From the NCBI GenBank assembly GCA_903907855.1, contig CAIVPT010000272.1, positions 1 through 47,237 of the forward strand: a stretch of 47,237 nt of DNA, in the 5' to 3' direction. The translations under genes and the position numbers were made by a program. Positions within the stretch are counted from its first letter, which is position 1. Every line of letters starts with the position of its first letter. Positions 1,055-45,444 of the stretch are shown one piece after another. The notes below the pieces were generated by a model. That model saw only the letters and a list, made by a program, of their open reading frames with translations, made no database searches and was not told the origin of the DNA. This DNA comes from an uncultured Synechococcaceae cyanobacterium (lineage in GTDB: Bacteria; Cyanobacteriota; Cyanobacteriia; PCC-6307; Cyanobiaceae).

Positions 1055-1600
1055 ATGGCCAGGCTCCCGATTCCCACCACTGCTTCCGTACCGGCCGCAG
1101 CGCCCCTCGATCCCCTGCAGCGAGCGGAGCTGTGGATGGACCGCCTGTTGCGACGCGCGGCGGTGGTGGGCGAGACCGGTGAGGTGCCGGTGGCGGCGGT
1201 GGTGCTGGATCGATATGGCCGTGCGGTGGGGTGGGGCAGCAACCGCCGCCACCATGGCCACGACCCCCTGGGCCATGCCGAACTCGTGGCCCTGCGTCAG
1301 GCGGCCGCCAGCCGGGGCGACTGGCGTTTCAGCGACTGCACCTTGGTGGTGACCCTGGAACCCTGCCCGATGTGCGCCGGAGCCCTGATCCAGGCGCGCA
1401 TGGGCACGGTGGTCTTCGGCGCCGCGGATGGCAAACGGGGCGCCCTGGGGGGCTGCCTGAATCTGGCGACCGATCCAAGCGCCCACCATCACCTCACCGT
1501 GATCGCTGGGGTGCGGGCGGAGGCGGCCCGTGCCCAGCTGGAGGATTGGTTCCGCAGACGGCGCGGGGAGCGAATCGCCCGCGCCCGCCCGCAGAGCTGA
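1055..1600 (+). CDS. tadA: tRNA-specific adenosine deaminase TadA
   Basis: TadA deaminates adenosine 34 to inosine in the anticodon wobble position of tRNA-Arg(ACG). The 181-residue product has the cytidine/deoxycytidylate-deaminase zinc signature: HAE (His74, catalytic Glu76) and PCPMCAGA (Cys104 and Cys107). Length is usual for the family plus about 20 proline- and alanine-rich residues at the N-terminus. The ATG at 1055 was preferred to an in-frame ATG at 965 because homology-like sequence begins only around residue 20 and the longer version would reach into the divergent decarboxylase. The gene converges on the aminotransferase, with stops 6 bases apart. Confidence 0.93.
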   Translation: MARLPIPTTASVPAAAPLDPLQRAELWMDRLLRRAAVVGETGEVPVAAVVLDRYGRAVGWGSNRRHHGHDPLGHAELVALRQAAASRGDWRFSDCTLVVTLEPCPMCAGALIQARMGTVVFGAADGKRGALGGCLNLATDPSAHHHLTVIAGVRAEAARAQLEDWFRRRRGERIARARPQS

Positions 1601-1606
1601 TGCCCC

Positions 1607-2797
1607 TCAGGCCGCCACAGCGGCCCGGGCCGGACTGCGGAATGCAGGCAGCTCGGTCTCGAAGAGGTTCAGCAGGCGATCGACGTTTTCGGGGGTGCTG
1701 TTGTAGCCCATCAGACCGACGCGCCATACCTTGCCGGCCAGGTCCCCGAGGCCACCGCCCACCTCAATGCCGAAGCTGTTGAGCAGGTGCTGGGAGAAGG
1801 CTTTGCCGTCGACCCCCTCGGGGATGCGCACGGTGGTGAGGGTGGGAAGGCGCAACTCCTGGGGAACATGAAGCTCAAGCCCCAGCTGCTCGAGGCCCTG
1901 CCAAAGGCGCTCAGCGTTGCGGCGATGGCGGTTCCAGGCGTTGTCCAGGCCCTCCTCGGCCAGGAGTCGCAGGGCTTCCCGCAGGCCGAAGTTCATGTTC
2001 ACCGGGGCGGTGTGGTGGTACGTGCGGTCGCTGCCCCAGTACTTGTTGAGCAGGGACACGTCCAGGTACCAGTTCGGAACCTTGCCGGTGCGGGCGGCCA
2101 GCTTGGCCTCCGCCCGCGGGCCCATCGAGAAGGGACCGAGACCGGGGGGGCAGCTGAGGCCCTTCTGGCTGCAGCTGTAGGCCAGATCAACCTTCCAGGC
2201 GTCGAGGTACAGGGGCACGGCCCCCAGGGACGTGACCGTGTCGAGAAGAAGGAGGCAGTCGTGGCGGCGGCAGAGATCGCCCACCCCCTCCATCGGCTGG
2301 CAGACGCCCGTGGAGGTTTCCGCGTGCACCATCGCCAGGATTGCCGGCTTGTGGGTGCTCACCGCCTCCTCAAGCTCCGCCAGGGAGAATGCCTCACCCC
2401 AGGGCCGTTCGATCGTGACCACAGTGGCGCGGTAGCGCTGGGCCATATCCACCAAGCGCTGGCCGAAGTACCCCATCACGGCCACCAGCACGGTGTCGCC
2501 GGGCTCGATTGTGTTGGCGAGGGTGGCCTCCATGGCGGCACTTCCGGTGCCACTCATCGGCAGGGTGAGGCGGTTGTCGGTCTGCCACACGTAGCGGAGC
2601 AGCTCCTGCACCTCCGCCATCAACTCGATGTAGAGGGGATCGAGGTGACCGATCGGTGTGCGGGCGAGGGCCTCCAGCACCATCGGATGGGCATTGGAGG
2701 GGCCCGGCCCGAGCAGCAGACGGTCGGGGGTGGCAATCGGCGCCAGCCCGAGCCGGTGGGCGTCGTTCACGGGGGGCAGGGCGGAGGAAGCGGACAA
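1607..2797 (-). CDS. Alanine/serine-glyoxylate aminotransferase, class V
   Basis: A 396-residue fold-type I PLP aminotransferase of the small archaeal/eukaryotic-type class V group that uses glyoxylate as amino acceptor with alanine or serine as donor. In cyanobacteria this step recycles photorespiratory glyoxylate to glycine. Seen directly: LLGPGPSNAHP near the N-terminus, MSGTGSAAMEA (phosphate-binding region), Asp186 in LLLDTVTSLG, and the Schiff-base lysine Lys212 in SCSQKGLSCPPGLGP. The length is standard. The donor specificity (alanine versus serine) cannot be read from the sequence. It converges with tadA; apcF lies upstream on the same strand, 57 bases away. Confidence 0.92.
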   Translation of the reverse strand: MSASSALPPVNDAHRLGLAPIATPDRLLLGPGPSNAHPMVLEALARTPIGHLDPLYIELMAEVQELLRYVWQTDNRLTLPMSGTGSAAMEATLANTIEPGDTVLVAVMGYFGQRLVDMAQRYRATVVTIERPWGEAFSLAELEEAVSTHKPAILAMVHAETSTGVCQPMEGVGDLCRRHDCLLLLDTVTSLGAVPLYLDAWKVDLAYSCSQKGLSCPPGLGPFSMGPRAEAKLAARTGKVPNWYLDVSLLNKYWGSDRTYHHTAPVNMNFGLREALRLLAEEGLDNAWNRHRRNAERLWQGLEQLGLELHVPQELRLPTLTTVRIPEGVDGKAFSQHLLNSFGIEVGGGLGDLAGKVWRVGLMGYNSTPENVDRLLNLFETELPAFRSPARAAVAA

Positions 2798-2854
2798 GAC
2801 CGGGGGCAGCGGAACGGTGCGCTGAGATTAGGCAACGGAGTGGGGTTGCGGGAC

Positions 2855-3373
2855 CTAGCGGGCTCGCACGTTGCTGGCGGCCAGACCGCGGCACAGGTGG
2901 TCGAACGGAGCCCGCACGGCGGCGCTTTCGGGGAGGCCGGCAGCGCTGAGCATCTCCACCACCACATCCCGGAGCAGGGCGATGCCGCGCACGGTGGGCC
3001 CTGTGGGAACGCCAAGGCTCTTGTAGGTGTCGTCCAGGCCGTTGAGCACCCGTTCATCGAGGATGGTGACGTCGTCGGCGATCAGGGCGTAGCTGGCGTA
3101 GCGCAGGAAGTAGTCCATGTCGCGCAGGCAGGCGGCCAGACGCCTGGTGGTGTAGGCGTTGCCACCGGGGAGAATCAGCTCCGGGTTGTCCTGCCAGAGG
3201 CGCTGGGAGGCCTCGCGCACAATCGTGGTGGCCTCCCGGTTGATCAGCTCCACCGCCGCCAGGCGCAGGCTGGCCTGGGCGTAGTAGGCGTCGATCCGAT
3301 CGATCGCGGCGCGATCGAAGTAACGGCCGAGCTTGTCGTAGCGACCGATCAGGCCGCTGATGGCATCGCGCAT
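2855..3373 (-). CDS. apcF: Allophycocyanin beta-18 subunit ApcF
   Basis: ApcF is the minor beta-type allophycocyanin of the phycobilisome core, where it pairs with the core-membrane linker ApcE and helps pass excitation energy to the photosystems. The 172-residue product starts MRDAI, as beta-type allophycocyanins do, has the chromophore-binding cysteine at position 82 (AACLRDMDY) and the conserved Asn72 in PGGNAYTTRR that is methylated in beta subunits. ApcF is favoured over ApcB because of the YDKLGRYFD N-terminus and GPTVRGIALLRDVV; this is from memory of the family, not an alignment. It is divergent from glnA across a 325-base spacer. Confidence 0.88.
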   Translation of the reverse strand: MRDAISGLIGRYDKLGRYFDRAAIDRIDAYYAQASLRLAAVELINREATTIVREASQRLWQDNPELILPGGNAYTTRRLAACLRDMDYFLRYASYALIADDVTILDERVLNGLDDTYKSLGVPTGPTVRGIALLRDVVVEMLSAAGLPESAAVRAPFDHLCRGLAASNVRAR

Positions 3374-3698: not shown

Positions 3699-5116
3699 AT
3701 GGCCAAGACCGCTCAGGACGTTCTTCGTCAGATCAAGGATGAAGGCATCGAGCTGATCGATCTGAAATTCGTCGATCTGCACGGCAAGTGGCAGCATCTG
3801 ACGGTCTGCTCCGACCTGCTCGACGCCGATGCCTTCACGGACGGCGTGGCCTTTGACGGCTCATCCATCCGGGGTTGGAAGCCATCAATGAATCGGACAT
3901 GGCGATGGTGCCCGATCCCGAGACCGCCTGGATCGATCCTTTCTATAGCCACAAAACCCTCAGCCTGATCTGCTCGATTCAGGAGCCCCGCAGCGGCGAG
4001 CCCTATGCCCGCTGTCCCCGTGCCCTGGCCCAGAAGGCGTTGAACTACCTCGCCTCCACCGGACTGGCCGATACTGCCTATTTCGGCCCCGAGCCGGAAT
4101 TCTTCATCTTCGACGACGTTCGCTACAAGAGCAGCAACGGCAGCAGCTTCTATCAGGTGGATTCCATCGAGGCCGCCTGGAATACCGATCGTGTAGAGGA
4201 GGGCGGCAACCTCGCCTACAAGATCCTCCTCAAAGAAGGATATTTCCCGGTTGCCCCTAACGACACATTACAAGATATCCGCAGCGAGATGCTGCTGACC
4301 ATGGGCGCCCTTGGCGTGCCGATCGAGAAGCAGCACCACGAAGTCGCCACCGCCCAGCACGAGCTCGGCATCAAATTCTCGGAGCTGATCAAGGCGGCCG
4401 ATAATGTGATGATCTACAAGTACGTGGTGCGCAACATCGCCCGTAAGTACGGCAAGAGTGCCACCTTCTTGCCCAAGCCTGTCTTCGCAGACAATGGCAG
4501 TGGCATGCATGTACACCAGAGCCTCTGGAAGGGCGGCCAGCCCCTGTTCTTCGGGGAGGGCACCTACGCCAACCTTTCCCAGACCGCGCGCTGGTACATC
4601 GGCGGCCTGCTCAAGCACGCCCCCTCCTTCCTCGCCTTCACCAACCCCACCACCAACAGCTACAAACGGCTGGTGCCAGGGTTCGAGGCGCCGGTGAATC
4701 TGGTGTACTCGCAAGGCAACCGCTCCGCAGCGGTGCGGATCCCGCTGACCGGCCCGAATCCCAAGGCCAAGCGACTGGAATTCCGCTCCGGCGACGCCCT
4801 CGCCAATCCTTATATCGCTTTTGCGGCGATGTTGATGGCCGGCCTGGATGGCATCAAAAACCAGATCGACCCCGGCGACGGCACCGACGTTGATCTGTTC
4901 GAACTCTCCGCCGAGGAGCTCGCCAAGATCTCCACAGTGCCCGCCTCCCTCAACGGGGCCCTCGAAGCCCTCGATGCCGACAAGGACTACCTGCTTGCCG
5001 GTGGCGTGTTCACGGAAGACTTCATCAGCAACTGGATCGCGATGAAGTACGAGGAGGTGCAGCAGCTACGTCAGCGGCCCCATCCCCATGAGTTCGTGAT
5101 GTACTACGACGCCTGA
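3699..5116 (+). pseudogene. glnA: glnA, type I glutamine synthetase, with a one-base frameshift
   Basis: Glutamine synthetase makes glutamine from glutamate, ammonia and ATP and is the entry point of nitrogen assimilation. Residues 1-61 (ending DGSSIRGWK) read from the ATG at 3699; the rest, from [13 protein letters not shown] onward, continues in the next frame to 5116. Restoring one G after 3881 (AAGCC to AAGGCC) gives an uninterrupted protein of 472 residues, the usual GSI length. The active-site motifs are all present: [41 protein letters not shown]. The region that carries the adenylylated tyrosine in enterobacteria reads [10 protein letters not shown], with phenylalanine, in line with cyanobacterial GS being controlled by other means. 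Everything but the single base looks functional, so a sequencing or assembly error is the likelier explanation; a real mutation cannot be excluded. Confidence 0.9.
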
Positions 5117-5462: not shown

Positions 5463-5810
5463 GTGCAGCACCCTGAGGCCCCCCCGGCGAGCGTCACGCC
5501 CGCCACCCCAATACCCCCTTCAGCCACCGCCTGGCCGGAGGGATCCCTGGATCTCGCTGAGGCGTTGTTGCAGCGGCTGGCGATCGGGGATCGCGAATGG
5601 CATGCCGTCAAGAATCAGCCGTCTCGGCGCGCGGCCGAGCAGCTGGCGGCAGGCCTGGTGCAATTGCTCAGCGGCGAGGATCCCCGCCGCCGCGAAGCGG
5701 GCGAAGCGCGTCTGCGGGCCGTCGCCCTGGTCGAGAACGGCCTCGACTGGCTGCGCGGCAACCTCAAGGACCCGGGCTGCCCGCACCGCTCCCCCGCAGA
5801 CCAGCGTTGA
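5463..5810 (+). CDS. DUF6439-like conserved cyanobacterial protein
   Basis: A 115-residue soluble protein starting at GTG 5463. The core from about residue 26 (EGSLDLAEALLQRLAIGDREWHAVK) through SRRAAEQLAAGLVQLLSG and NLKDPGCP looks like a small helical family of unknown function found across Synechococcus and Prochlorococcus that I associate with DUF6439; that name is from memory. The first 25 residues are proline- and alanine-rich and may not be conserved. Its 3' end overlaps the end of the convergent anti-sigma-type gene by 47 bases. Confidence 0.7.
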   Translation: MQHPEAPPASVTPATPIPPSATAWPEGSLDLAEALLQRLAIGDREWHAVKNQPSRRAAEQLAAGLVQLLSGEDPRRREAGEARLRAVALVENGLDWLRGNLKDPGCPHRSPADQR

Positions 5811-6222
5811 AGCGGATCAGCGCCGTCGTCAGGCCCTGGCGACGGGCCGCCAGCTGCAAACGGTTGCCCCGGGGACTCCAGCGGACGTCGTCGAAGCAGT
5901 GATGGATCAGGAAAAGGCCGCGCCCGCTGATCGATCCGGCCTCCAGGGGCAGGTGGCGGACGCGGGACTGGGGCGGCAGGCCAGGGCCCTCATCCTGGAT
6001 CTGCCACACCAACCAGCGGGGGGTCACGATGCGCCGCACCCGCAGACACTTGGCCGGATCACATCCGTTGCCGTGTCGCACCGCATTGACCAGGGCCTCC
6101 TGCAGGCCCAGTTGCAGCTCGCCCAGGCGCGGAGCGCCCCCCACGGGTTCAAGAAGCAGTTCCAGTAACGGTGCCAGCTGCAGCGTGGAGGGCGTGATGT
6201 AATCGGCCCAGCGCACTGCCAT
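5764..6222 (-). CDS. RsbW-like anti-sigma factor / serine-protein kinase (HATPase)
   Basis: A 152-residue stand-alone GHKL ATPase of the kind that acts as anti-sigma factor or kinase in partner-switching systems. The N-box is seen in LGLQEALVNAVRHGN (Glu and Asn for Mg-ATP), the G1 box in QDEGPGLPP and the G2 box in GRGLFLIHHCFDD. There is no sensor or membrane domain. The ATG at 6222 is preferred to a TTG five codons upstream. The last residues overlap the convergent gene at 5463-5810. The natural partner would be a STAS anti-anti-sigma factor; one is encoded at 36853-37158 but not next to it. Confidence 0.82.
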   Translation of the reverse strand: MAVRWADYITPSTLQLAPLLELLLEPVGGAPRLGELQLGLQEALVNAVRHGNGCDPAKCLRVRRIVTPRWLVWQIQDEGPGLPPQSRVRHLPLEAGSISGRGLFLIHHCFDDVRWSPRGNRLQLAARRQGLTTALIRFNAGLRGSGAGSPGP

Positions 6223-6305
6223 GGAGGCGTCTGCCAACGGGGAAGGGCCTGCTCACGCTAACGCGCAGAACGGCCGGGCCCCATGGACAGCGGCCGGTGG
6301 GCGAA

Positions 6306-19463: not shown

Positions 19464-20429
19464 TCAGGGAGCGGCAGGCTCAGGGGGGGGGTCGAGCTGG
19501 ATCGTGGTGTGGGCGATTCCGAGCCGCGCCAGCCGCGCCTTGGCCTGGTGCAGCAGTTCCATGTCGTCGCGGCCGATCGGCTGCCGCTTCAGATGGGCGG
19601 TGAGGGCATTCTGGGAGGTGCTCATCGCCCAGATGTGCAGATGGTGCACATCCACCACCCCCGGCAGACTCCGTAACGCGGCTTCCACCTCGTGGGGATC
19701 GATGCCGCGGGGTACCCCGTCGAGAACAATCCTCAGGGATTCCCGCAGCAGGCTCCAGCCGCTGGCCGCCACCGCCAGTCCCACACCGATGGCGGTGAGT
19801 GCGTCGAGCGCATTCCAGCCGGTGACCCGCACCAGCACGGCGCTGGCGAGCACGGCGGCCGACACCGCGGCATCGGTGAGCAGGTGAACCACCGCCGCCC
19901 GTCGGTTGAGATCGTGGGGGTGGCCCTGGCCGAACAGCCGTGCCGACAGCAGGTTCACCACGATGCCTGCGGTGGCCGCCGCCGCCACCGGACCGCTCAC
20001 CATCGGCACCGGCTCCCGCAGCCGTTGCAGCCCCTCCACCACCAGCACGGCCGCCGCCATCAGGATCAACACCGCATTGAGCAACGAGGCCAGCTGGGTG
20101 CCACGGCCGAAGCCATAGGTGAAGCGGGGGGTGGCCGGCCGGGTGCTGAGCCGCTCGGCCCCCCAGCCCAGCAGCAGGCCGGCCACATCGCCAAGGTTGT
20201 GGATGGCGTCGCCGATCAAGGCGAGGGAGCCGAAGGCCATGCCGAAGGCCAGCTGCAGGCCAGACAGGCAGCTGTTGAGCACGATGCTCCAGCGAAACGC
20301 GGCCGGGGAACCGGCGCGATGCTCGTGCTGGTGGCGATGGGAGCGGCGCTGCTCTGCCACCGCCGGATGCTCCGGCCCCGCGAGCGGCCCGGGCGGCGGC
20401 GCGGGAGGGGACGAGGGGGGAGGCTCCAT
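19464..20429 (-). CDS. Cation diffusion facilitator (CDF) family transporter
   Basis: A 321-residue six-helix metal/proton antiporter, most likely for Zn2+ or Co2+. The cytoplasmic N-terminus has a histidine-rich HRHQHEH segment, a probable metal-sensing or chaperoning site. The transport-site motifs are visible: DAIHNLGD in helix two and HLLTDAAVS in helix five. The C-terminal domain (about 225-315) contains VPRGIDPHEVEAALRSLPGV and DVHHLHIWAMS, the usual dimerisation and sensing fold. Metal choice is not certain from sequence alone. Confidence 0.92.
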   Translation of the reverse strand: MEPPPSSPPAPPPGPLAGPEHPAVAEQRRSHRHQHEHRAGSPAAFRWSIVLNSCLSGLQLAFGMAFGSLALIGDAIHNLGDVAGLLLGWGAERLSTRPATPRFTYGFGRGTQLASLLNAVLILMAAAVLVVEGLQRLREPVPMVSGPVAAAATAGIVVNLLSARLFGQGHPHDLNRRAAVVHLLTDAAVSAAVLASAVLVRVTGWNALDALTAIGVGLAVAASGWSLLRESLRIVLDGVPRGIDPHEVEAALRSLPGVVDVHHLHIWAMSTSQNALTAHLKRQPIGRDDMELLHQAKARLARLGIAHTTIQLDPPPEPAAP

Positions 20430-20506
20430 AGACCGGAAAAAGGGGCGGTGCAGCCAAGCCGATTGTGCCCGCGACGGCGGGAGCGCCCCACACCTCCCGA
20501 AACGCT

Positions 20507-20520
20507 AGTACAGATGAACT
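20507..20520 (+). promoter_or_regulatory. LexA-like SOS box upstream of umuC
   Basis: AGTACAGATGAACT matches the cyanobacterial LexA consensus RGTACNNNDGTWCB at 13 of 14 positions (A instead of T at position 11) and is a near palindrome of AGT(A/T)C and G(A/T)ACT half-sites. It ends at a TATCCT (20520-20525) that could be the -10 box, so a bound repressor would block transcription of the UmuC-like gene starting at 20547. The assignment rests on the consensus as I recall it. Confidence 0.65.
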
Positions 20521-20546
20521 ATCCTGGGTGGTCGTACGCGCCCGCC

Positions 20547-21866
20547 ATGCCCCCCCTCGCCCCGTCCTCGCGGGCGGCCTTCGTGCTGGTCGATGCCAAC
20601 AACTTCTATGCCTCCTGCGAGGCCGTGCTCGACCCCTCCCTGCGCCGCCGCCCGCTCGTCGTTCTCTCCAACAACGACGGCTGCATCGTGGCCCGCAGCG
20701 CCGAGGCCCGGGCGCTGGGCATCGCCATGGGCACCCCTTACTTCCAGGCCCGACGCACGCTCGAACGCCACGGCGTGCAGGTGCGCAGCTCCAACTACGC
20801 CCTCTACGCCGACATGAGCCAGCGGCTGATGGCCACCCTGGAGCACTGGCTGGAGGAGCTGGAGATCTATTCGATCGACGAAGCCTTCGGCCGGCTGCAC
20901 CGCCCCCGCTCCGCCCGTGGCACCTCCGCGGATCTGAGCGCCTGGGGGGAGGCGCTGCGCGCCGCCGTGCGGCGCGACCTGGGCCTGCCGGTGGCGGTGG
21001 GGATCGCCCCCACGAAAGTGCTCGCCAAGCTGGCCAACCGCATCGCCAAGCACCATCCCGAGCGGCGGTGGCAGGGGGTCTTCGATCTGGGGGCCGTGGA
21101 CGACCCCGATCCCTGGCTGGAGGCGGTGGCGGTGGAGGAGGTCTGGGGAATCGGCCGGACGTTGGCCCGCTGGTGCCGGTTGCGGGGCGTCCGCACCGCC
21201 CGCGAACTGCGCGATCTGCCCGCCGGCGAGCTGCGCCAGCGCTGCGGCGTGGTGGGCCTGCGGCTGCAGCGGGAACTGCAGGGATGGAGCTGTCTGCCCC
21301 TGGTGCGGCTACCACCGGCCCGCCAGGAAACCTGCGTGAGCCGCAGCTTCCGCCAGCCACTGCGCAGCGCCCAGGAACTGCGCGAGGCCGTGGCCACCTA
21401 CCTCAGCCGGGCCGCCGAGAAGCTGCGCCGCCAGCGGCAGCGCGCCGGCACCGTCACCGTCTTCGTGCGCACCAGCCCCTTTGACGGCCGGCCCTTCTAC
21501 AGCAACGCCGCCACCGTGCAGCTGGCCGTGCCCAGCGACGACACCGCCGTGCTGCTGGCCGCCGCCCTGCCGTTGGTGGAGCGGCTGTTCCGCCCCCACC
21601 GCCCCCTGCAGAAGGCCGGCGTACTCCTGCAAAATCTGCAGTCACGGGAAACGCTGCAGCACCACCTGCTGGTGCCCCGCAGCGAGGCCGAGCAGCGGCG
21701 CCGCGCCGCCCTGATGGCCGTGGTCGATGCCCTCAACCATCGCTACGGCCGTGGCACGGTGCAGTGGGCGGTCTGCGGGCTGCAACCGGGGTGGACCATG
21801 CGACGCTCCCGCCTGTCGCGCTCAGCCACCACCCGGCTGGGGGAGCTGCCGGTGGCCCGCGCCTGA
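20547..21866 (+). CDS. umuC: Y-family DNA polymerase, UmuC-like
   Basis: A 439-residue translesion polymerase resembling the catalytic subunit of DNA polymerase V. Catalytic residues are visible in VDANNFYASCE (Asp16, with Phe-Tyr steric gate) and YSIDEAFG (Asp111, Glu112). LSNNDGCIVARS, GIAPTKVLAKLANR and EVWGIGRTLARWCRLRGV (helix-hairpin-helix) follow. The little-finger domain spans about 245-380, and a C-terminal DUF4113-like tail contains RYGRGTVQWAVCG and WTMRRSRLS. The ATG at 20547 is preferred because an in-frame ATG at 20514 lies inside the LexA-like box. No umuD gene is adjacent. Confidence 0.92.
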   Translation: MPPLAPSSRAAFVLVDANNFYASCEAVLDPSLRRRPLVVLSNNDGCIVARSAEARALGIAMGTPYFQARRTLERHGVQVRSSNYALYADMSQRLMATLEHWLEELEIYSIDEAFGRLHRPRSARGTSADLSAWGEALRAAVRRDLGLPVAVGIAPTKVLAKLANRIAKHHPERRWQGVFDLGAVDDPDPWLEAVAVEEVWGIGRTLARWCRLRGVRTARELRDLPAGELRQRCGVVGLRLQRELQGWSCLPLVRLPPARQETCVSRSFRQPLRSAQELREAVATYLSRAAEKLRRQRQRAGTVTVFVRTSPFDGRPFYSNAATVQLAVPSDDTAVLLAAALPLVERLFRPHRPLQKAGVLLQNLQSRETLQHHLLVPRSEAEQRRRAALMAVVDALNHRYGRGTVQWAVCGLQPGWTMRRSRLSRSATTRLGELPVARA

Positions 21867-34547: not shown

Positions 34548-36416
34548 TCAGAGGCTGATATCCCTGGAGAAGGGATCGGTCATCGGCGCGGGGAGTCCCC
34601 CTCCCGGAGCGTCCTCCAGGGACTCGGGCTCGTGGGGCTGGGACTGGGCCTCAGGGGGCGGGGTGGCAAACGCGGGAGCGGGCATCCAGGAGGGCCGATC
34701 GCCAGCCACCGCATCGAAGGTCTCCTCAGGGGCCTCCTCAGGGGCCTCCTCAGAGTCAGAGGGCTCCTCAACGTCAGAGGATTCCTCAGAATCAGAGGCC
34801 TCAACAGCGACCGGAGGGTGGGAATCCTCATCAGCCGGGAGAGGGGAATCCGCCAGAGCTGCGGTGAGTTCCTCCTGGTGGGTGGCAACCGTGGGTTCAG
34901 CCAAGGCCACGGGCCCCTCATCAGCCACAGCCGCCGGCGGAGCCGGCAGGGCGGGCCGCACGAGCCGCGGCGCTGGGGCGCTGCCGCTCAGGCCATGCAT
35001 CCAGCCGCGACGGGCCACCTCGAACAGCACCAGGGCCGTGGCCACAGCGGCGTTGAGGCTCGGGGTGGCACCCCGCAGCGGCACGCGCACCAGCTGGTCG
35101 CAGCTGCGGCGCGTGAGCATCGAGAGGCCCTCCCCCTCCGATCCGGTGACGACCACCAGAGGGCCGCTCAGATCAGCCTCCTCCAGGGTGACGCTGCCTT
35201 CCCCGGCCAGGCCCACCACCCGGTAGCCCTCCTGCTTGAGGGTGTCGAGGGCGCGATTGAGGTTCACCACCCGAGCCACGGGCAGATGTTCCAGGGCGCC
35301 GGCGGCCACCTTCGCCACCGAACCGGTGAGGCCGGCACTGCGACGCTGGGGGAGAACCATGCCGTGGGCACCGAGGGCCTCGGCGCTGCGCACGATCGAA
35401 CCCAGGTTCTGGGGGTCGGTGAGTCCGTCGAGGGCGATCAGGAGGGGAGCTTCCGCCAGTTGGCTACAGCCCTCCATCAATGTGGGGAGATCGAGACTCT
35501 CGGCGGCGGCGGGCTGGAGCACGATCCCCTGGTGCACCGCACCCCCACTGATCTGGCCCAGCCGGGCCCAGGTGACCTCCTCCACAAGCACGCCCGAGGC
35601 CTTGGCCTCGCGCAGCAACTGCAGGAAGCGGGGGCTGAAGCGCATCTCCGGGGTGCACCAGACCCGGTGCACTGGCCGACCACTCTCCAGGGCCGCCAGG
35701 GCGGTGTGACGCCCCCAGATCAGGTCGGTGGCGACATCGGGGGCATGGCTGGCGGCTTCCCCGCGCGACTCAGGTCCGCCGGCATCGGCGAAAACGGCCG
35801 GGCCGGAGCGCTCGCTGCGACGGAGGTCGGGCGGGGCGCCTTCCCGGAGGGGCCGGCGAGGGAAACGGGGCTGGGGGAAGCGGGGCTGGCGGCTGTCGGC
35901 GCCGCGCTCTCCGGAGGGGGAGGGAGAGCGATCGGGCCCGCCGAAGCGGTCCGGCCGACTGAAGCGATCGGGCCGGCCGAAGCGCTCGGGGCGGCCGGGT
36001 CTTGCCGGTCGGGGGAAGCGATCCCCGGTAGCGGGGCGCTCGCCACGGCCGAAGCGGGGCCCCCGCTCCGGGCGATCACCGCGCTCAAAACGGGGGGCAG
36101 AGCGGAAGGGGCGGTCGCCACGCTCACCGCCACGCTCGCCCCCCCGCTCGCCGGGTCGTTCGCCGGGTCGCCCACCAGGCCGCTCGGACGAGCGTGGACC
36201 GGGCCGATCAGCGGGGCGTTCAGGGGAACGCCAGGGCCGTTCGCCCGAGCGCTGCCAGGGGTTCTCACCCCCCGGCTCCCGATCGCGACGGGGGCCGGGC
36301 GGACCAAAGCGGGAGGCACCGGGACGGGGACCCCGCCGACCGGCGGGGCCGTTGCCTGGACCGGGGCGACCACGGTCCGGCCTCGGGTCGAAGCGACGAT
36401 CGGATGGGGGACTCAT
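34548..36416 (-). CDS. rlmB: 23S rRNA 2'-O-methyltransferase, RlmB/TrmH family, with long disordered tails
   Basis: The catalytic core (about residues 230-490) is a SPOUT 2'-O-ribose methyltransferase of the RlmB type, which modifies guanosine 2251 of 23S rRNA. It has the L30e-like substrate-binding part (LIWGRHTALAALESGRPVHR) and the knot motifs ALDGLTDPQNLGSIVRSAEA, VVTGSEGEGLS and VPLRGATPSLNAAVATAL. The N-terminal 230 residues are almost only R, P, G, D, E and F in RP/RFG-type repeats; the C-terminal 130 are acidic (EASDSEESSDVEEPSDSEE). Both tails are predicted disordered. At 622 residues it is more than twice the usual length. mini-RNase III, another rRNA-processing gene, lies just upstream. 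Confidence 0.9.
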   Translation of the reverse strand: MSPPSDRRFDPRPDRGRPGPGNGPAGRRGPRPGASRFGPPGPRRDREPGGENPWQRSGERPWRSPERPADRPGPRSSERPGGRPGERPGERGGERGGERGDRPFRSAPRFERGDRPERGPRFGRGERPATGDRFPRPARPGRPERFGRPDRFSRPDRFGGPDRSPSPSGERGADSRQPRFPQPRFPRRPLREGAPPDLRRSERSGPAVFADAGGPESRGEAASHAPDVATDLIWGRHTALAALESGRPVHRVWCTPEMRFSPRFLQLLREAKASGVLVEEVTWARLGQISGGAVHQGIVLQPAAAESLDLPTLMEGCSQLAEAPLLIALDGLTDPQNLGSIVRSAEALGAHGMVLPQRRSAGLTGSVAKVAAGALEHLPVARVVNLNRALDTLKQEGYRVVGLAGEGSVTLEEADLSGPLVVVTGSEGEGLSMLTRRSCDQLVRVPLRGATPSLNAAVATALVLFEVARRGWMHGLSGSAPAPRLVRPALPAPPAAVADEGPVALAEPTVATHQEELTAALADSPLPADEDSHPPVAVEASDSEESSDVEEPSDSEEAPEEAPEETFDAVAGDRPSWMPAPAFATPPPEAQSQPHEPESLEDAPGGGLPAPMTDPFSRDISL

Positions 36417-44478: not shown

Positions 44479-45444
44479 TCAGGCGCTGCGGGGGAGGGAA
44501 ACCACGGAAGCGGCCGCAGGCCGATCCTCACGGATGAGCTCCACGGGGAAGGGGAGCGCCTCCACCTCCCGCTGGCTGAGTCGGCGGCTCCAGGCACCGC
44601 TCACCGGCTCGTTCCAACGGAAGCCGGCCTCCCGGGCCCGATGCCGCTCGGCGTAGGAGAGGCAGGCGCGGTAAAGCTGGCGCGGCTCCAGGGCCGCCTG
44701 CAGCAGAGCCTCAAGATCAGCACAGCGCTCGAACACCTGGACGAGATAGGTGCAATCGGTGAGCGCCCGGTGGGCGGCCCAGACCGGAACCCCATAGGCC
44801 AGGGCCAGATCGCGCACGGAGGGGGTGGCCCGCAGGTGGCGATCGCTGGGCCATCGGATCTCCTCCATCGAGCAGATCCAGGGTTTCCCGAGGAAGGGCA
44901 GGGCGCCGTGGCCAAACCACTGGCGATCAAAAGCTGCGTTGTGGGCGAGCAGGGCATCGGCGGCGGCAACCATCGCCTCGAAGCAGGTCAGGCCGGCCTG
45001 CCACGGCTGCGGCAGCTGGGTGGCGGCGGCGGGGATGCCGTTGATCGCCTCCGCCGGATTGCTGGGGGCTGGCAGCAGGAAGGAGATCTGCGAGAGCACC
45101 GTGCGACTGGGCACATGGAACAGCACGGCGCCCACCTCCAGGCACTGGCCCTCGGTGGGGGACAGGGCGGTGGTCTCGGTGTCGAGAATCAGCAGCCGTT
45201 CCGGGGCCGGCGGCAAGCCCCGGGACGGGACGGTGGGCAATTCCGGCAGGGAAACGGGCGCCGGCACTGGGCTGGGGGGGGCGGGGGCTGGCGCTGGGCT
45301 GGGGAGGGCGGGGGCTGGCGCTGGGCTGGGGAGGGCGGATGCAGGCGCTGGGATGGGTGGGGCGGGCCGCTCGAGGGGCTTGGAGACTTCGGAAGGGGCG
45401 CCGAGCAGGTTGGGCTGCTCCCACAGACTCGCTTGCTCGTGCAT
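44479..45444 (-). CDS. 3'-5' exonuclease, DnaQ-like fold
   Basis: A 321-residue protein. After an N-terminal linker of about 75 residues made of proline/alanine repeats, a DEDDh exonuclease domain follows: Exo I LILDTETTALSPTEGQCLEVG, shown in part LILDTETT, Exo II LLAHNAAFDRQWF, and Exo III WAAHRALTDCTYLVQVF. The C-terminal 80 residues (YRACLSYAERHRAREAGFRWNE) look like the accessory domain seen in cyanobacterial homologues. ATG 45444 was chosen; the frame is open upstream by chance. It is divergent from the peroxiredoxin gene. Confidence 0.88.
   Translation of the reverse strand: MHEQASLWEQPNLLGAPSEVSKPLERPAPPIPAPASALPSPAPAPALPSPAPAPAPPSPVPAPVSLPELPTVPSRGLPPAPERLLILDTETTALSPTEGQCLEVGAVLFHVPSRTVLSQISFLLPAPSNPAEAINGIPAAATQLPQPWQAGLTCFEAMVAAADALLAHNAAFDRQWFGHGALPFLGKPWICSMEEIRWPSDRHLRATPSVRDLALAYGVPVWAAHRALTDCTYLVQVFERCADLEALLQAALEPRQLYRACLSYAERHRAREAGFRWNEPVSGAWSRRLSQREVEALPFPVELIREDRPAAASVVSLPRSA
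45265..45355. repeat. 30-base tandem repeats coding for a Pro/Ala linker
   Basis: About three near-identical 30-base units (containing GCTGGGGAGGGCGGGGGCTG) encode LPSPAPAPA-type decapeptides in the exonuclease linker. The unit length is a multiple of three, so copy number can vary without changing the frame. Confidence 0.85.

What the first reader, a model, noticed from the sequence alone, without database searches (positions are those of the whole stretch)
3876..3886. One-base deletion splits an otherwise intact glnA
Upstream codons end at SIRGWK (Lys61) and downstream sequence resumes as [10 protein letters not shown] one frame over. Adding one G to AAGCC restores a 472-residue type I glutamine synthetase with all active-site motifs. 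GlnA is normally indispensable, and no decay is visible elsewhere in the gene. So it is either a sequencing error, a recent loss covered by another GS (for example GlnN), or programmed frameshifting. No slippery heptamer is visible at the site.
Basis: partly seen in the sequence, partly recalled or inferred. Interest (0 to 1): 0.7.

Follow-up and report, generated by a model that had tools for sequence, protein, structure and literature searches.

The report
Broken glnA, probably a sequencing error
A nitrogen-assimilation gene (glnA) in a draft cyanobacterial genome is one letter short, most likely a reading error though a very recent real loss is almost as likely, and in many relatives the gene has given way to an apparently dead but preserved version of the enzyme.

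Summary
In detail: glnA is one base short at codon 61 (window 3879-3881). Otherwise the two halves give a 472-codon type I glutamine synthetase with the active-site motifs intact. The closest held relative, G033, is intact.

I judge it an assembly or sequencing deletion (0.55) or a very young real null (0.43). Programmed frameshifting is rejected. For error: selection shows no sign of having relaxed (85 synonymous, 3 replacement changes against G033), and two other conserved genes here carry clean one-base deletions in 260 kb of alignment, none accepted in G033. For real loss: an intact GSIII gene, glnN; glnA mutants with glnN are viable in print; relatives have lost glnA.

More interesting, 17 of 42 genomes of the genus carry a divergent, open GlnA in place of the canonical one. 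In the three read in full it sits at the glnA locus, with metal and substrate residues replaced yet under selection: an apparent pseudoenzyme. glnN is present in all 17.

The parts
3699..3968 (+). Upstream reading frame of glnA: residues 1-61 of GlnA, then 28 out-of-frame codons to a stop; 89 aa
   Evidence: PF03951 positions 2-46
3879..3883 (+). Site of the one-base deletion at codons 61-62; the exact base within 3879-3881 cannot be placed
   Evidence: alignment to G033; Lys61 uninterrupted in 24 of 24 relative loci shown
3875..5116 (+). Downstream reading frame of glnA, 413 aa: second half of the beta-grasp domain and the catalytic domain
   Evidence: TIGR00653 590.8 bits
2858..3376 (-). Phycobilisome-family gene (apcD-like by my reading) upstream of glnA; this flank is shared with the divergent glnA of L269, L271, L272
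   Evidence: PF00502 177 bits; blastn synteny
5767..6237 (-). HATPase_c_2 gene downstream of glnA; this flank is shared with L269, L271, L272
   Evidence: synteny

Best explanation
The missing base is most likely absent only from the assembly: a one-base deletion made in sequencing or consensus building of a 320-contig draft genome, in an otherwise normal and selected glnA. Shown: the deletion is in the held sequence, the gene is otherwise intact and conserved, and two other conserved genes in the sampled part of the same genome are split in the same way. Inferred: that these are errors and not mutations.
For: Against G033, glnA has 85 synonymous and 3 replacement differences (dN/dS 0.009). 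By the majority of 18 other same-genus loci only one replacement (residue 258) is private to this genome. If selection had been off for a fraction f of this genome's branch, about 140 f replacements would be expected, so f is below about 3% (my estimate; equal rates and an even split assumed). In 260 kb of alignment to G033, three clean one-base deletions split conserved frames here: glnA, an MBL-rhodanese gene (C18:11247) and a kinase-like gene in a run of G (C32:13572); gene labels by my reading. I accepted none the other way. The kinase-like gene is matched in one frame in the other 9 of 10 genomes searched (in G030 and G035 with one TGA inside the match) and split only here. None of the three lies near a contig end. 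Split genes also occur in other drafts of the genus: G007 glnN, G031 MBL-rhodanese.
Against: Three against none is a small sample (a fair coin gives it 1 time in 8), and rows were accepted by eye. An intrinsic frameshift scan did not separate the genomes: 14 candidates in 637 kb here, 19 in 1,178 kb of G033, and its last filter lost two of the three known cases. Small indels are balanced (89 deletions, 81 insertions of 1-2 nt). All three split genes could be dispensable (glnN backs glnA; C250 has a 73% paralogue of the rhodanese gene). The glnA deletion is not in a long homopolymer. A relative with glnN, G036, has a different glnA lesion.
Confidence: 0.55

Rival explanations
1. A real, very recent loss of glnA. 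The cell makes a useless 89-residue peptide and assimilates ammonium through GSIII (GlnN) alone, as glnA mutants in the laboratory do.
For: Intact glnN (722 aa) is the only other PF00120 match in the genome. glnA mutants of PCC 7002 and PCC 6803 are reported to grow without glutamine, and a cited title calls GSIII the only glutamine synthetase of Pseudanabaena PCC 6903 (PMC6316151, passages and reference list). glnA is reported missing from freshwater SC5.3 strains (PMC9361551, passages). Of 18 family genomes looked at closely, 6 that are at least 96% complete (G095, G100, G111, G114, G139, G142) have no GlnA over the TIGR00653 cut-off but have glnN; G114 shows glnA in three pieces while its genus-mate G146 is intact. 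G036 lacks 217 bases covering the glnA start and codons 1-72. 17 of 42 genomes of the genus have a divergent GlnA instead.
Against: No trace of relaxed selection, so the break would have to be caught within about the last 3% of the branch. Two further clean one-base deletions in the same genome suggest a common technical cause. G036 is a 78%-complete draft and may itself be an artefact. The TIGR00653 cut-off is also missed by 1 of 14 control genomes, so falling below it is not proof of loss.
Confidence: 0.43
2. Programmed -1 frameshifting, or reinitiation at TTG 3875, yields a working enzyme from the interrupted gene.
For: The downstream ORF has a TTG at its start, and the frame is clean on both sides.
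Against: Zero-frame codons GGT TGG AAG CCA hold no slippery heptamer (my reading). Downstream RNA is no more stable than shuffles (z 0.55, 139 of 200 shuffles at least as stable). 24 of 24 relative loci shown have no shift. A protein begun at 3875 lacks the D50/S53 loop that completes the neighbouring subunit's active site (established GS structure, recalled), and I see no ribosome-binding site spaced for it.
Confidence: 0.02

Closest known systems
Cyanobacterial glnA mutants kept alive by glnN (Synechocystis PCC 6803, Synechococcus PCC 7002)
   Same: glnA not functional, GSIII gene intact in the same genome
   Different: Those are made mutants; here the break is one base in a draft assembly and may not be real
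Pseudanabaena PCC 6903 and freshwater SC5.3 picocyanobacteria, reported without GSI
   Same: GSIII as the remaining glutamine synthetase
   Different: There glnA is reported absent; here it is whole but for one base
Gene-fragmenting indel errors in draft assemblies
   Same: single-base indel, reading frame clean on both sides, no other decay
   Different: Sequencing method of this genome is unknown, so the error type cannot be matched

Membership tests
Type I glutamine synthetase (GlnA, TIGR00653) | Score over the family cut-off (429 bits) | tested here: met
   downstream piece alone 590.8 bits
Type I glutamine synthetase (GlnA, TIGR00653) | Metal and substrate residues (E129, E131, E212, E220, H269, R344, E357; numbering recalled) | tested here: met
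   motifs identical to G033
Type I glutamine synthetase (GlnA, TIGR00653) | One uninterrupted reading frame of about 470 codons | tested here: not met
   broken at codon 61
Programmed -1 frameshift gene | Slippery heptamer with a stimulating structure | tested here: not met
   no heptamer by reading the sequence; fold z 0.55
Programmed -1 frameshift gene | Shift conserved in relatives | tested here: not met
   0 of 24 relative loci shown
True pseudogene | Further lesions or relaxed selection | tested here: not met
   no other stop; dN/dS 0.009
Sequencing or assembly error | Base present in raw reads | not testable with these tools
   no reads available
GSIII backup (GlnN, PF12437) | Intact gene in the same genome | tested here: met
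   C217, 722 aa, PF12437 241.3 bits

The most novel reading that the evidence does not exclude
In part of this genus the glnA locus has been turned into a gene for a GlnA-derived pseudoenzyme. 17 of 42 genomes lack canonical GlnA and carry an open, divergent GlnA (G003's and 16 others 58-80% identical to it). In the three read in full (G003, G012, G028) it sits between the same neighbours as glnA. E131, E212, E220, H269, R344 and E357 are replaced, a stretch of over 20 residues is missing in the two aligned, and selection still acts (dN/dS 0.34-0.46, against 0.04-0.06 in two canonical pairs). GSIII would make the glutamine, and the dead GlnA would keep a structural or regulatory task such as nitrogen sensing or binding a GS partner (task inferred). 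The broken glnA of the window would then be an early step of the same escape from GSI.
Probability: 0.7. Interest if true: 0.65.

Novelty: not a real feature. Interest (0 to 1): 0.42.

Why it matters
For the window: do not count this genome as a natural GlnA-null, nor as an error, until reads are seen. For biology: GSI is widely treated as the indispensable entry of ammonium into metabolism. Here is a bacterial family in which it seems to have been lost or disarmed more than once with GSIII present, and in which its own locus can hold a preserved but apparently inactive GlnA. That makes two questions testable: what GSI does besides catalysis, and why GSIII can replace it.

Tried and rejected
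Programmed frameshifting and TTG reinitiation: rejected. A second glnA copy in the genome: none found. The same deletion in viral contigs: 0 matches, uninformative. An intrinsic codon-usage frameshift scan: not discriminating. Other apparent frame changes in the survey were set aside after inspection: C19:8344 (upstream of an era-like start), C32:6655 (upstream of a thiC-like start), C41:3723 (5' end of a folC-like gene); window 44462 and C18:9279 (not clean coding); window 45551 (a cluster of indels); window 6266 and 13563 and C4:4191 (taken to be between genes). The remaining rows failed on identity or third-position mismatches by eye. These were judgements, not a formal test. In one search the own glnA was read one base out of register; its 'own' numbers are void and one search replaces them. 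One search used 24 of 29 loci (L020, L021, L025, L027, L028 were missed by my start-codon search); one search covers all 29. Whether the 17 divergent-GlnA genomes form one clade was not tested.

Full report
What is there. The window is contig C272 of a 3.0 Mb, 320-contig genome. At 3699 a glnA begins ([11 protein letters not shown]...); its frame is right up to Lys61 and then wrong, ending at a stop at 3966-3968. The rest of GlnA is open in the next frame, 3875-5116. Pfam divides the beta-grasp domain between the pieces at profile position 46/47. The closest relative by GlnA among the 60 searched, G033, is 91% identical in DNA over the window and has the gene intact. Relatives spell Lys61 AAA or AAG, so which base is missing cannot be told.

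How unusual it is. 79 read residues 5 or less to 465 or more in one frame. The exception is G036, a 78%-complete draft, in which 217 bases from the start to codon 72 are missing between well-conserved flanks.

State of the gene. Against G033 there are 85 synonymous and 3 replacement differences, dN/dS 0.009. By the majority of 18 other same-genus loci, two of the three replacements lie on the G033 side and one (residue 258) is private to this genome. If selection had ceased for a fraction f of the branch, about 140 f replacements would be expected, so f is below about 3% (my estimate). The break is therefore either not real or very young.

Is the assembly to blame? I held 637 kb of this genome and 1,178 kb of G033; they gave 260 kb of alignment. 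After inspection, three one-base deletions split a conserved frame in this genome: glnA, an MBL-rhodanese gene (C18:11247) and a kinase-like gene in a run of G (C32:13572); the last two labels are my reading of the sequence. I accepted none in G033. The kinase-like gene is matched in one frame in the other 9 of 10 genomes searched, in G030 and G035 with one TGA inside the match. The rhodanese gene is in one frame in 7 of 10 genomes, split here and in G031, only weakly matched in G034, and has a paralogue in this genome at C250. An intrinsic scan did not distinguish the two genomes (14 candidates in 637 kb, 19 in 1,178 kb) and its last filter lost two of the three cases. Indels of 1-2 bases are balanced (89 to 81). 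So a technical cause is favoured but not proven.

Could it be real? Yes. The only other PF00120 match of the genome is an intact 722-aa GSIII, GlnN. Passages of PMC6316151 say that glnA mutants of PCC 7002 and PCC 6803 grow without glutamine, and a title in its reference list calls GSIII the only glutamine synthetase of Pseudanabaena PCC 6903. [quoted passage not shown]

Relatives. In the 42 genomes of the genus that were held, 25 (this one included) have canonical GlnA and 17 have instead a divergent GlnA: that of G003 and 16 others 58-80% identical to it, none with a stop inside. No genome is listed with both. For 14 of the 17 the lack of canonical GlnA was also seen with TIGR00653 and with DNA; for G060-G062 it rests. 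glnN is present in all 17 and in 39 of the 42 (not found in G034, G063, G064). The three divergent genes that I could read (L269, L271, L272) have the flanks of the canonical glnA locus. At E131, E212, E220, H269, R344 and E357 (Salmonella numbering, recalled) all three are changed; R359 and R321 stay, and E129 stays in two. L271 and L272 lack a stretch of over 20 residues. dN/dS among the three is 0.34-0.46; in two canonical pairs it is 0.037 and 0.058. Pfam still recognises both GS domains, but TIGR00653 gives L271's protein 315.7 bits, under its 429 cut-off. I read this as a GlnA-derived pseudoenzyme kept for another task. If strains of this kind were among those of PMC9361551, they may have been counted there as having glnA (inference).

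The wider family. In an even draw of 151 genomes of the family, matches of the divergent kind (E below 1e-150) occurred only in this genus, in 5 of the 7 members drawn; 25 of the 151 had no match at E 1e-60. I looked closer at 18 of the 151: 13 of those 25, plus G164, G086, G131, G145 and G146. Five of the 18 are over the TIGR00653 cut-off. Six that are at least 96% complete (G095, G100, G111, G114, G139, G142) are not, and have glnN. G114 has glnA in three pieces with a stop, while its genus-mate G146 is intact. G147, G158, G076 and G077 lack glnN and a whole GlnA, but they are 82-93% complete and say little. The cut-off is also missed by 1 of 14 control genomes.

Verdict. Error 0.55, recent real loss 0.43, recoding 0.02. 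I saw no paper on a catalytically dead GlnA in cyanobacteria in the listings of searches, which cover open-licence papers only; I read passages of four papers (PMC6316151, PMC4923085, PMC9361551, PMC5478717) and none in full.

Noticed in passing
L271:1012-2340 (G003), L272:1486-2811 - strand (G028), L269 within 1486-2871 - strand (G012); 17 of 42 genus genomes: Divergent GlnA at the canonical glnA locus with metal and substrate residues replaced, open and under selection: an apparent GS pseudoenzyme. It stands in for canonical GlnA; no genome is listed with both.
   Followed up: partly
L025 (G036:C101): Canonical glnA lacking 217 bases from the start to codon 72, flanks conserved; a second possible glnA null in the genus, in a 78%-complete draft.
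   Followed up: partly
G114:C2:33440-34646: glnA matched in three pieces with a stop and different open frames, the end unmatched: a decaying pseudogene, glnN intact; genus-mate G146 has intact glnA.
   Followed up: partly
G095, G100, G111, G139, G142: Family members at least 96% complete without GlnA over the TIGR00653 cut-off but with glnN.
   Followed up: partly
G000:C18:11247 and G000:C32:13572: Two more one-base deletions splitting conserved genes (MBL-rhodanese; kinase-like, in a run of G; labels by my reading) in the window's genome.
   Followed up: yes
G007:C54:14430-14914: glnN of G007 is matched in two adjacent pieces with different open frames, while its glnA is matched in one frame.
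   Followed up: no
G086 and G131 (one other genus of the family): GlnA over the cut-off but at only about 500 bits, more divergent than usual; possibly an intermediate state.
   Followed up: no
window 34587-34928 and 45260-45365: Stretches that differ in length from G033 by many bases while their flanks align well; low-complexity or repetitive by eye.
   Followed up: no
window 19692-21863: 724-aa ORF with a UmuC-type polymerase (IMS, IMS_C, DUF4113) whose first domain begins at residue 300; a 626-aa ORF overlaps it on the other strand.
   Followed up: no
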